The translations under genes and the position numbers were made by a program. Under the pieces are notes generated by a model. It searched no databases. It was not told the origin of the DNA and saw nothing but the letters and a program-made list of their open reading frames with translations. Positions 31 to 1,822 of a DNA stretch of 64,000 bases are shown here, one piece after another; the stretch's first letter is position 1, and every line of letters begins with the position of its first letter. The DNA lies in the IMG/VR virus record IMGVR_UViG_3300044653_000068, positions 1 to 64,000 of that record; one strand, 5' to 3'. This stretch comes from a virus.

Positions 31-113
31 ACAGGGGACGGTTATTCAGTTGTGCCTCCCCGGGGATGTCCGGGAAGTGTTAGGGCGCGGAGGGCATAAA
101 GGCGCTCCCGATT

Positions 114-126
114 GGGGGGGGGGGGG
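114..126. repeat. 13-base G homopolymer (C13 on the transcribed strand)
   Basis: A run of 13 G lies directly next to the end of the permuted tRNA 5' half; its first C on the minus strand is tRNA base 32. It spaces the tRNA 5' half from the inner helix strand AATCGG. Runs of this length are prone to sequencing and replication slippage, so the exact count is uncertain. Confidence 0.9.
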
Positions 127-209
127 ACCGCTGCTCTGCCTGGCTGAGCTACCCGAATGTGGGTGGACACCCGGGACGGGATTTGAACCCGCGACCTGCG
201 GTTTAACAG
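126..209 (-). tRNA. Circularly permuted tRNA-Asn(GTT)
   Basis: The 3' half comes first on the minus strand (209 down to 168), then a 9-nt linker TCCACCCAC (167-159), then the 5' half (158 down to 126). Joined in normal order they give a full cloverleaf. The acceptor is ATTCGGG with CCCGGGT (two G-U pairs) and bases 8-9 are TA. The D-stem is GCTC/GAGC with a 9-nt loop. The anticodon stem is GCGGT/ACCGC around loop CTGTTAA, the T-stem is GCGGG/CCCGT around TTCAAAT, and the discriminator is G. All four stems pair fully. In the order found in the DNA the anticodon stem cannot form, so the RNA must be circularised or trans-joined at the anticodon loop and then opened at the linker. No CCA is encoded directly after the discriminator. 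Confidence 0.85.
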
Positions 210-250
210 GTAATCGGAAGACTCCGGCTCTCCGCGACGCTATGGAGTTG

Positions 251-1300
251 TCAGGCGGCGGTGAAAGTGATCGAGGCCTTGGGGCTGCCGGGGTCGTTCC
301 ACCGCACGGTCACGGTGTAGACAGCGCCCTTGACGAGCGCCCCGTAGAACACCGCGTTCGTGGTGACGACCTTGGTGTCCATCAGCACGCCGTTCTTGAA
401 GATCGACGTTGACCAGGCAGCGCCGGCGACATCGCACGGCATCTTCCAGGACAGGTCCTCACGGGAGGGAGTGGTGGCGTCCGCGCTGGCGGTCAGGCCG
501 GCCGGGGCGGTAGTTGACGCCTGGTGGTTGCCCGTGATGCCAGTGCAGGCCGGCGGCGGGGTAACCGTGCTCACCAGGTTCGTGCCGTCCACGGAAGTGA
601 CGTAGCCGGTCTGCGTGGCGGAGGTGTCCCCGACTCCGATCCACGCCCAGACCAGCGGGTTGGTGTCGCCGTCCGGGTTGGTTGCGAAGTCCGCCTTGAC
701 CTGCGCCATGGTGATGGCGCACGTGCCGGCGGGGATCACGGTCGCGTTCTGCCCGGTCCACGTGCAGTCAACGCCGACAGCGGCCGCGTTCGTGTTGTTG
801 ACCGCGCCCATCGCGAGCTTGTTGGTGCCATCGTAGGCCGGGGTATCGCTCGCGCCGTGGTCCAGGAACACAGCCGACCCGCCCGGGAACCCGAGGAAGG
901 TGTCGGAGGCGCTGGTGTCAACGTAGAGGTTGTACCCCTCCAGGCCCGACCCGACGATGGCCGGCGCCACGAACTGCCCGTCCTTGTTGAACAGGTCGTG
1001 CAGGCGGCCCAGCGGGACGACGATGCCGGAGTCAGCGCCTGCGCCCGCGCTCAGGTCCACGCCGTTCGCGCCGAGCGTCTGGCTGGCGTCCGGATAGCCG
1101 AGGGGCGCGTTGCTGAACTCATTGCTAGCGGAGACGCTCGCGCTGCTGGCGGCGAACTGGTAGTCGCCGTTCTGCGCGAAGGTGGCCGCGCTGGCGGTCC
1201 CGCCCGCAAGGGCGGACGCACCGCCGGCCGTGAGAAGCAGCCCTGTGATGACGGCGACCGCGCGGATCGCCCCGGTGAAGCGCTTAGTGAAGTCAGTCAT
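251..1300 (-). CDS. Secreted phage protein with C-terminal fibronectin-like domain
   Basis: The 349-residue product starts with a classical Sec signal: basic residues, a hydrophobic stretch (about 15-32) and an AXA-type site near residue 38. The middle is Ala/Ser/Gly rich with no motif I recognise. The last 90 residues (from the Pro-rich segment near 250) look like a fibronectin type III or similar beta-sandwich, a fold common in extracellular actinobacterial proteins. The gene stands alone downstream of the structured RNA block. It has a TAGGTT box 7 nt before the ATG and no Shine-Dalgarno, so it is probably translated from a leaderless mRNA. Function unknown; export to the cell surface during infection is inferred from the signal peptide. 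Confidence 0.75.
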   Translation of the reverse strand: MTDFTKRFTGAIRAVAVITGLLLTAGGASALAGGTASAATFAQNGDYQFAASSASVSASNEFSNAPLGYPDASQTLGANGVDLSAGAGADSGIVVPLGRLHDLFNKDGQFVAPAIVGSGLEGYNLYVDTSASDTFLGFPGGSAVFLDHGASDTPAYDGTNKLAMGAVNNTNAAAVGVDCTWTGQNATVIPAGTCAITMAQVKADFATNPDGDTNPLVWAWIGVGDTSATQTGYVTSVDGTNLVSTVTPPPACTGITGNHQASTTAPAGLTASADATTPSREDLSWKMPCDVAGAAWSTSIFKNGVLMDTKVVTTNAVFYGALVKGAVYTVTVRWNDPGSPKASITFTAA

Positions 1301-1307
1301 GCGGTAG

Positions 1308-1336
1308 AACCTAGCCTCTCGTTACGCGGATGTCCT
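1308..1336 (-). promoter_or_regulatory. Promoter for leaderless expression of the secreted protein
   Basis: On the minus strand AGGACA (1331-1336), a 17-bp spacer and TAGGTT (1308-1313) lie 7 nt before the ATG at 1300. The expected transcription start falls on or next to the start codon. Confidence 0.55.
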
Positions 1337-1345
1337 GCGGTTAGG

Positions 1346-1444
1346 AGGGGGCATAAATCGGCGGCGCACTTCCCCCGCCTGCGCGGAGGTCATCCCAAGG
1401 AGATCCTTGGCTGGGGTGATAAGCGCCGGGCCGTCCGGCTCCCT
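1346..1444 (-). ncRNA. Structured RNA element, copy C
   Basis: H1 is AGG/CCT (1442-1444 with 1346-1348). H2 is CGGCGC/GCGCCG (1423-1428 with 1362-1367), followed by TTA as in the other copies. The conserved strands are GAGCCGGA (upstream) and TTATGCCC (1349-1356). The enclosed 52 nt form two hairpins (CCAAGG/CCTTGG and CTCCGC/GCGGGG) but no tRNA that I can draw. The distinct but complementary H2 sequence is a compensatory change that supports the model. Confidence 0.6.
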
Positions 1445-1454
1445 TTTACTAGAA

Positions 1455-1526
1455 CGCGGGCATAAGAATTGCGGTCGCCGGGGTTGCCTTTACAAGAGAT
1501 AACCCGGCTGTTGGGTCCGGCTCGCG
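1455..1526 (-). ncRNA. Structured RNA element, copy D, nearly empty
   Basis: H1 is CGC/GCG (1524-1526 with 1455-1457, extendable with a wobble). H2 is CCGG/CCGG (1504-1507 with 1478-1481). GAGCCGGA and TTATGCCC (1458-1465) are present. Only about 22 nt lie inside H2, so this copy carries no tRNA and may be an empty or decayed version. Confidence 0.55.
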
Positions 1527-1546
1527 CGCTGTGCAGTTGTGGAGAA

Positions 1547-1673
1547 CGCGGGGGGCATAAGGCGCGACCTGGGCGCCTCCCTTGCGGAAGACTCTGCCAA
1601 TAGACCTGAGCGGGTTTAGCGCTCCGGCCTGGTATCGAACCAGGATAACCAGATCCACATCCGGCTCCCCGCG
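1547..1673 (-). ncRNA. Structured RNA element, copy E, with a permuted T-arm/acceptor
   Basis: H1 is CGCGGG/CCCGCG (1668-1673 with 1547-1552). H2 is CTGG/CCAG (1649-1652 with 1569-1572), followed by TTAT. GAGCCGGA and TTATGCCC (1553-1560) are conserved. Inside, a perfect T-arm CCTGG-TTCGATA-CCAGG (1628-1644) leads into CCGGAGC(G), a 7-nt turn, then (C)GCTCAGG, which pairs back with one mismatch as an acceptor stem. A D-loop-like TTGGCAGAG follows. I could not build a complete anticodon arm, so this is a partial or decayed permuted tRNA, or one split in the variable region. Confidence 0.55.
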
Positions 1674-1697
1674 ATGTTCATGAAGTTGTCGGGCTGG

Positions 1698-1822
1698 GCG
1701 GGGGCATATGTGAGGCACCTGGGTTTTCGCGCGCTACCGTTACGCCAACGCCCTCACGGGCTCCCGGAGTTGAACCGGTCCTCGACCTCCGCAGGGTAAC
1801 CAGACGCCAGTCCGGCTCCCGC
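1698..1822 (-). ncRNA. Structured RNA element, copy F, enclosing a probable permuted tRNA-Arg
   Basis: H1 is GCGG/CCGC (1819-1822 with 1698-1701). H2 is CTGG/CCAG (1800-1803 with 1719-1722), followed by TTA. The upstream strand has GAGCCGGA and the downstream strand has ATATGCCC (1702-1709), one base off the usual TTATGCCC. The inserted segment carries tRNA pieces in 3'-half then 5'-half order, as in copy B. Confidence 0.6.
1727..1796 (-). tRNA. Probable permuted tRNA-Arg(GCG)
   Basis: If the segment ending at 1727 (…G-CGA) is joined to the one starting at 1796 (CC-CTGCGGA-GGTCG), the anticodon stem CGACC/GGTCG is perfect. The loop CTGCGGA has T33 and anticodon GCG. The D-arm is GCGT/GCGC with loop AACGGTA; the T-arm is CCGG-TTCAACT-CCGG. 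The acceptor is weaker: AGGGCGT with GAGCCCG has mismatches at 1:72 and 6:67. The linker between acceptor strands is only about 2 nt. Two well-paired arms at the predicted joint favour a real permuted tRNA, but the acceptor defects mean it could be decaying or need 5' repair. Confidence 0.5.

What the first reader, a model, noticed from the sequence alone, without database searches (positions are those of the whole stretch)
86..1822. New structured RNA family with two covarying helices around the insert
Five complete copies (86-236, 1346-1444, 1455-1526, 1547-1673, 1698-1822) share, on the minus strand, helix H1, GAGCCGGA, helix H2, TTA, an insert, H2', TTATGCCC (ATATGCCC in copy F), and H1'. 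Helix sequences differ but stay complementary. H1 is CGCGGA/TCCGCG, AGG/CCT, CGC/GCG, CGCGGG/CCCGCG and GCGG/CCGC. H2 is CCGATT/AATCGG, CGGCGC/GCGCCG, CCGG/CCGG, and CTGG/CCAG twice. Compensatory change with two conserved internal strands is strong evidence of selected RNA structure. The whole module is far smaller than a self-splicing intron. Inference: a compact motif, ribozyme or protein-recognised, that ligates or splices across H2 and circularises the insert.
Basis: partly seen in the sequence, partly recalled or inferred. Interest (0 to 1): 0.96.

Follow-up and report, generated by a model that had tools for sequence, protein, structure and literature searches.

The report
Phage Y RNAs carrying rearranged tRNAs
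The repeated RNA structure is a row of phage-encoded "Y RNAs", the partner RNAs of the Ro60 protein, many of which hold a tRNA whose two halves are swapped; it is not a new self-splicing RNA, but the intact, varied anticodon loops inside it are unusual and testable.

Summary
All five copies exist, the outer helix shows strong compensatory change across 84 homologues, and the conserved strands recur in dozens of phages. The ribozyme/circularisation reading is not supported. Every record tested with a genuine-looking copy (31 of 31) encodes a Ro60/TROVE protein, against 0 of 40 control phage contigs. Where Ro lies in the same locus it is on the same strand and almost always just downstream. The window's phage has Ro across its contig junction, 35 nt after the last copy. 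The conserved strands (GRGCCGRA / ACWYGYYC) resemble the Ro60-binding stem of animal Y RNAs. The inserts in A, E and F are circularly permuted tRNAs (3' part first), the layout of the tRNA-mimic module of bacterial YrlA. Unlike YrlA, about half of the homologous copies keep a whole anticodon hairpin: 52 of 58 have U33 and a purine at 37, with about 25 different triplets. Ser/Leu anticodons sit on bodies without the long variable arm, acceptor ends are often capped by 3-5 nt loops, the split point varies, and RtcB is absent. So these look like tRNA mimics held in a Ro RNP, not spliced tRNAs. Phage Ro/Y RNAs are known; this is an Rfam-undetected variant.

The parts
86..236 (-). Y RNA copy A: Ro-type stem (GAGCCGGA 223-230, TTATGCCC 92-99) enclosing a permuted tRNA with anticodon loop CTGTTAA (GUU)
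   Evidence: Rfam YrlA 37.3 bits at 129-200
176..192 (-). T arm of copy A (GCGGG TTCAAAT CCCGT)
203..209 (-). anticodon loop of copy A, CTGTTAA, lying upstream of the T arm (3' tRNA part first)
   Evidence: read directly
133..151 (-). D arm of copy A (UAGCUCAGCCAGGCAGAGC), lying after the T and acceptor arms: permuted order
1346..1444 (-). Y RNA copy C, same Ro-type stem (GAGCCGGA 1434-1441, TTATGCCC 1349-1356) with a non-tRNA insert
1455..1526 (-). Y RNA copy D, shortest; GAGCCGGA 1516-1523, TTATGCCC 1458-1465; insert keeps only an anticodon-loop-like CTTGTAAA, no T arm
1547..1673 (-). Y RNA copy E: T arm, acceptor (CCGGAGC/GCTCAGG), D-like arm and a GCAA-capped hairpin; split point in the variable region
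   Evidence: minimum-energy fold forms H1, H2 and these arms
1698..1822 (-). Y RNA copy F: ATATGCCC 1702-1709, GAGCCGGA 1811-1818; permuted tRNA with hairpin ACC-CTGCGGA-GGT
1..30 (-). 5' start of copy G (GAGCCGGA 18-25); complete at G000 115138-115027, followed by the Ro60 start codon at G000 114992 (537 aa, TROVE + vWA_Ro60, outside the window)

Best explanation
The region is an array of at least six Y RNA genes of a phage Ro60 (Rsr) ribonucleoprotein, transcribed towards the phage's own Ro60 gene. H1 plus GxGC/GyYC and the CGRA/ACWY internal loop form the Ro-binding basal stem; H2 is the upper stem. The insert is the exchangeable effector module. In three of the five complete window copies, and in most homologues collected, it is a circularly permuted tRNA, closed at the acceptor end by a short loop and joined to the Y stem inside the anticodon stem (most often between positions 28 and 29) or at the variable loop. 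Shown here by sequence: the structure, permuted order, canonical anticodon hairpins, and linkage to Ro. Inferred: Ro binds the stem and stabilises the RNA; the tRNA mimic is not spliced out but presents a tRNA-shaped surface to tRNA-acting enzymes or tethers a nuclease (PNPase in Deinococcus), so the RNP handles, degrades or shields RNA during infection.
For: TROVE in 31/31 records with the motif versus 0/40 chance-match phage contigs. Ro lies downstream on the same strand in 46 of 48 locus-strands where both were seen, nearest copy typically 130-600 nt upstream. The window phage's Ro (G000 113379-114992) scores TROVE 141 and vWA_Ro60 188 bits, and matches Ro60 1yvp and D. radiodurans Rsr 2nvo at E below 1e-100. 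Cultured phages Sparky, Sebata and BearBQ have copies directly before an annotated Ro gene. Covariation; second position of GxGC/GyyC is G-C 42, A-U 28. The stem resembles vertebrate Y1: 5' GGUCCGAAG, 3' ACUUGACU (sequence in PMC3928194) against phage GRGCCGRA and ACWYGYYC. Permuted T-acceptor-D order matches YrlA's module. Canonical loops 52/58 versus 1.9 expected.
Against: No expression or binding data. The outer strands are not detected by any Rfam Y RNA model, and the YrlA hit covers only the inner tRNA-like part in most copies. The resemblance to the vertebrate Ro site is short, and part of the phage motif was fixed by the search patterns. No Ro was found inside 13 of 61 locus-strands, several of them cut short. 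The tethering or surface function is borrowed from Deinococcus and Salmonella work.
Confidence: 0.92

Rival explanations
1. Permuted tRNA genes that are spliced or ligated at the anticodon stem (by the flanking RNA itself or a ligase) and matured into working tRNAs, with the Ro-type stem as processing guide.
For: In copies with a GAGC D stem, the 5' half supplies 2-3 pairs (27-28/29) in 25 of 27 cases and the 3' half supplies 29-31, together a complete anticodon stem. 11 of 90 acceptor linkers still read NCCA. Host RtcB exists in many bacteria.
Against: 19 of 52 canonical loops carry Ser or Leu anticodons although the variable region scanned is only 3-6 nt; SerRS and LeuRS substrates in bacteria have a long variable arm (established knowledge). 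50 of 90 acceptors are closed by 3-5 nt loops. The split point varies. The flanks also surround non-tRNA inserts. No phage RtcB in 24 records.
Confidence: 0.06
2. A new small ribozyme that cleaves or ligates at the TTA boundary and circularises the insert.
For: Compact conserved internal loop with covarying helices.
Against: Universal Ro linkage; resemblance to the Ro60-binding stem; variable insert and junction position.
Confidence: 0.01
3. A functional refinement of the Y RNA reading, not exclusive of it: anticodon-arm decoys. The Ro-stabilised mimics present many different anticodon loops to soak up host anticodon nucleases (or the enzymes that modify anticodon loops), protecting phage translation.
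For: Canonical U33/R37 loops with about 25 triplets, retained although the bodies do not fit decoding. Competitive inhibition of an anticodon nuclease has been proposed for Salmonella YrlA (PMC7790460). Phages counter tRNA-cleaving defences (PMC7824862).
Against: Many copies lack the anticodon arm (window C, E). Loops could simply be relics of repeated tRNA capture. Not tested.
Confidence: 0.25

Closest known systems
YrlA bacterial Y RNA (Rfam RF02553; Salmonella, Mycobacterium)
   Same: Basal stem from both ends, tRNA-like module with T, acceptor and D arms in permuted order, linkage to a Ro60/Rsr gene
   Different: YrlA pairs the two anticodon-stem strands directly and has no anticodon loop; the basal-stem 5' strand differs (CgaAUGC versus GRGCCGRA); phage copies score 33-49 bits against a cut-off of 69; the phage copies come in arrays with varied inserts
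Vertebrate Y RNAs (hY1) and the Ro60-binding lower stem
   Same: Helix, then CGAA(G) on the 5' strand opposite ACUUG on the 3' strand, exchangeable loop domain
   Different: No tRNA module in the vertebrate RNAs; the phage helix has G-C where Y1 has U-A at one position
Permuted tRNA genes of red algae and archaea
   Same: 3' half precedes 5' half
   Different: Those are spliced at a bulge-helix-bulge motif by a protein endonuclease into working tRNAs; here Ro-type stem, capped acceptors, mismatched anticodon and body (comparison from general knowledge)
Y RNAs reported in mycobacteriophages (Chen et al. 2014, cited in PMC12282133)
   Same: Same phage group, presumably including some of these loci
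   Different: The paper could not be read here; whether it described full anticodon arms is unknown

Membership tests
Y RNA (Ro60/Rsr ligand), broad sense | gene linked to a Ro60/TROVE gene | tested here: met
   31/31 versus 0/40 controls, same strand downstream
Y RNA (Ro60/Rsr ligand), broad sense | 5' and 3' ends form a basal stem with a conserved internal loop | tested here: met
   covariation, conserved strands, fold of copy E
Y RNA (Ro60/Rsr ligand), broad sense | sequence of the Ro-binding site like known Y RNAs | tested here: inconclusive
   5-8 of 9 and 3-6 of 8 positions shared with Y1, but some positions were fixed by the search pattern
Y RNA (Ro60/Rsr ligand), broad sense | physical binding to Ro60 | not testable with these tools
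   needs pull-down or gel shift
YrlA (RF02553) | reaches Rfam gathering score of 69 bits | tested here: not met
   best 48.7 bits (L222), window copy A 37.3
YrlA (RF02553) | tRNA-like module with T, acceptor, D arms in permuted order | tested here: met
   model positions 23-86 align
YrlA (RF02553) | anticodon-stem strands paired directly, no anticodon loop | tested here: not met
   58 of 113 copies have an anticodon hairpin; 52 canonical
Functional (permuted) tRNA gene | anticodon consistent with body (long variable arm for Ser/Leu) | tested here: not met
   19 Ser/Leu anticodons on bodies with 3-6 nt variable region
Functional (permuted) tRNA gene | single fixed splice junction | tested here: not met
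   junction between 28 and 29, between 31 and 32, or in the variable loop
Self-splicing or self-cleaving ribozyme | catalysis in vitro | not testable with these tools
   no Rfam ribozyme match

The most novel reading that the evidence does not exclude
Phages repeatedly capture whole tRNAs into Y RNAs, permuting and capping them so they cannot be charged, and keep their anticodon loops as a diversified set of Ro-stabilised decoys against host anticodon nucleases.
Probability: 0.25. Interest if true: 0.88.

Novelty: new variant of a known kind. Interest (0 to 1): 0.6.

Why it matters
What phage Ro60 and its Y RNAs do is unknown, although 340 phage records here carry a Ro homologue. A variant Y RNA that keeps a complete anticodon arm narrows the possible partners of the tRNA-mimic module to things that touch anticodon loops: nucleases, modifying enzymes, the ribosome. 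Cultured phages of Mycobacterium smegmatis and Gordonia carry it, so the question can be tested directly. It also points to repeated conversion of tRNAs into Y RNAs, and to a class of permuted tRNA-like genes that annotation either misses or mislabels.

Tried and rejected
The first pattern scan gave 30 contigs, most of them chance matches in coding sequence; only those with T-loops and pairing flanks were kept. A scan for the non-permuted order (TTATGCCC...GAGCCGGA) gave chance matches, which then served as the TROVE negative control. Blastn of the window array against phages found nothing, so the array is visible only at motif level. Group I-like PIE introns, twister/HDV-type ribozymes and BHB introns were considered and dropped: no Rfam match, no fixed junction. 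RAGATH-31 (21.8 bits) is far below threshold. Single-sequence folding is not decisive: z-scores -0.2 to -1.8, and copy F does not fold into the expected form alone. Chen 2014 and three other Ro/Y RNA papers are not held.

Full report
WHAT IS THERE. On the minus strand the five copies are present as described. The contig (115,256 bases, a virus record) is circular or terminally redundant: window 1-140 matches G000 115114-115255 at 97%, differing mainly in a poly-C run (13 against 15). This reveals a sixth copy, G, across the junction (left motif G000 115138, right motif 115027), whose right motif lies 35 nt before the ATG of a 537-aa protein at 114992.

THE NEIGHBOUR IS RO60. That protein has TROVE (141 bits) and vWA_Ro60 (188 bits) domains and matches solved Ro60 (1yvp) and D. 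radiodurans Rsr (2nvo) at E below 1e-100. Of 31 records holding the motif, including G000, all have TROVE. Of 40 phage contigs picked up by a chance DNA pattern, none has. In loci where both are visible, Ro is on the same strand in 48 of 48 and downstream in 46. The same layout occurs in cultured phages: Sparky, Sebata, BearBQ, and by eye Phabba and Trina. The first of these were found by blastn.

THE STEM. Consensus: H1 - GRGC - CGRA - N4-6 - H2 - UUAYC - insert - H2' - N5-8 - ACWY - GYYC - H1'. In 84 distinct stems chosen without using H1 pairing, 85% of cells pair (63% shuffled) and 251 cells are changed on both sides (98 shuffled; 51-81 when slid). The GxGC/GyyC pair alternates G-C (42) with A-U (28), rarely G-U (1); the window's own copies have A.C there. 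H2 support is real but weaker. The strands resemble the Ro60-binding site of vertebrate Y1 RNA, whose ends GGCUGGUCCGAAGG and GCACUUGACUAGUCU are printed as primers in PMC3928194. A review gives the vertebrate Ro60 site as a 7-bp helix, a bulged C and an opposite 3-nt bulge, and states that bacterial Rsr binds the lower stem (PMC4726728). The phage motif was in part fixed by the search patterns, so this likeness is supporting evidence only.

THE INSERT. Copy A reads anticodon loop CTGTTAA, T arm, 3' acceptor CCCGGGT, linker, 5' acceptor ATTCGGG, TAGCTCAG..GCAGAGC D arm, GCGGT: a tRNA with its halves swapped. The Rfam YrlA model aligns to exactly that part (37 bits, cut-off 69). 113 homologous copies were parsed; a few of these may be chance matches. 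By pairing alone, 58 have a 3-bp anticodon hairpin with a 7-nt loop, and 52 of these have U33 and a purine at 37; shuffling the segment gives 1.9 on average, maximum 7. About 25 triplets occur. In copies with a GAGC D stem, positions 27-28(29) in the 5' half pair with 43-42 in 25 of 27, so the Y stem enters the anticodon stem at 28/29. In others it enters at 31/32 (copy A, L021) or in the variable loop with a GNRA-capped arm (copy E, L021, L081). Copies C and D, and two of the three Sebata elements, have the same stem without a tRNA.

WHY A MIMIC AND NOT A SPLICED tRNA. 19 of 52 canonical loops carry Ser or Leu anticodons on bodies with a 3-6 nt variable region, unlike bacterial tRNA-Ser and tRNA-Leu. 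(The scan only considered variable regions of 3-6 nt, but the hairpins were found there.) 90 of 113 copies have a good acceptor stem, and in 50 of these it is closed by 3-5 nt, often UUCG or GNRA. There is no single junction. No RtcB is encoded in 24 records. Eleven linkers still show NCCA, which suggests fairly recent capture from true tRNAs.

WHAT IT DOES. Known: YrlA's tRNA-like domain is modified by DusA and TruB, and in Deinococcus Rsr and Y RNA direct PNPase to structured RNA (PMC8394870). In Salmonella rsr-yrlBA-rtcBA the tRNA-like domain was suggested to inhibit an anticodon nuclease (PMC7790460). Phage TROVE proteins have been noted as RNA-repair platforms with a tRNA-like partner (PMC7824862), and Y RNAs have been reported in mycobacteriophages (cited in PMC12282133). 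The safest statement is a phage Ro-Y RNP with a tRNA-shaped effector module. The retained anticodon hairpins make the decoy hypothesis attractive (0.25) but it is untested.

NOVELTY. Y RNAs, phage Ro proteins and permuted tRNA-like modules are all known kinds. New as far as could be checked: full anticodon arms with many triplets, several entry points, arrays mixed with tRNA-free Y RNAs, and failure of the Rfam YrlA model. Chen et al. 2014 could not be read, so part of this may already be described. A search for phages with a permuted tRNA in open papers returned nothing that described this.

Noticed in passing
window 114-126: A run of 13 G (poly-C on the Y RNA strand) in copy A is 15 long in the duplicate at the contig end, which probably kept the assembler from closing the circle; it may be a variable tract.
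   Followed up: partly
window 2240-3997 (-): 585-aa protein: N-terminal radical SAM domain fused to a long tail full of CxPD/CGP repeats, unusual for a radical SAM enzyme and reminiscent of a modified-peptide substrate fused to its enzyme.
   Followed up: no
window 251-1300 (-): 349-aa protein with a signal-like N-terminus and no Pfam match sits inside the Y RNA array, between copies A and C.
   Followed up: no
L367 2146-2354 (Rhodococcus phage Trina NC_042040): Annotated 209-nt pseudo 'tRNA-OTHER' directly before Ro overlaps a Y RNA array and was probably read as one intron-bearing tRNA.
   Followed up: partly
L001, L021 and window copy G: A shared non-standard insert 'TTAGGGAGTGYGGCTTCTCC' between acceptor and H2' recurs in different phages: possibly a third insert class with a specific partner.
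   Followed up: no
window 58838-58910 (-): ARAGORN calls a tRNA-Ala (ggc) here that Rfam's tRNA model does not report at its threshold.
   Followed up: no
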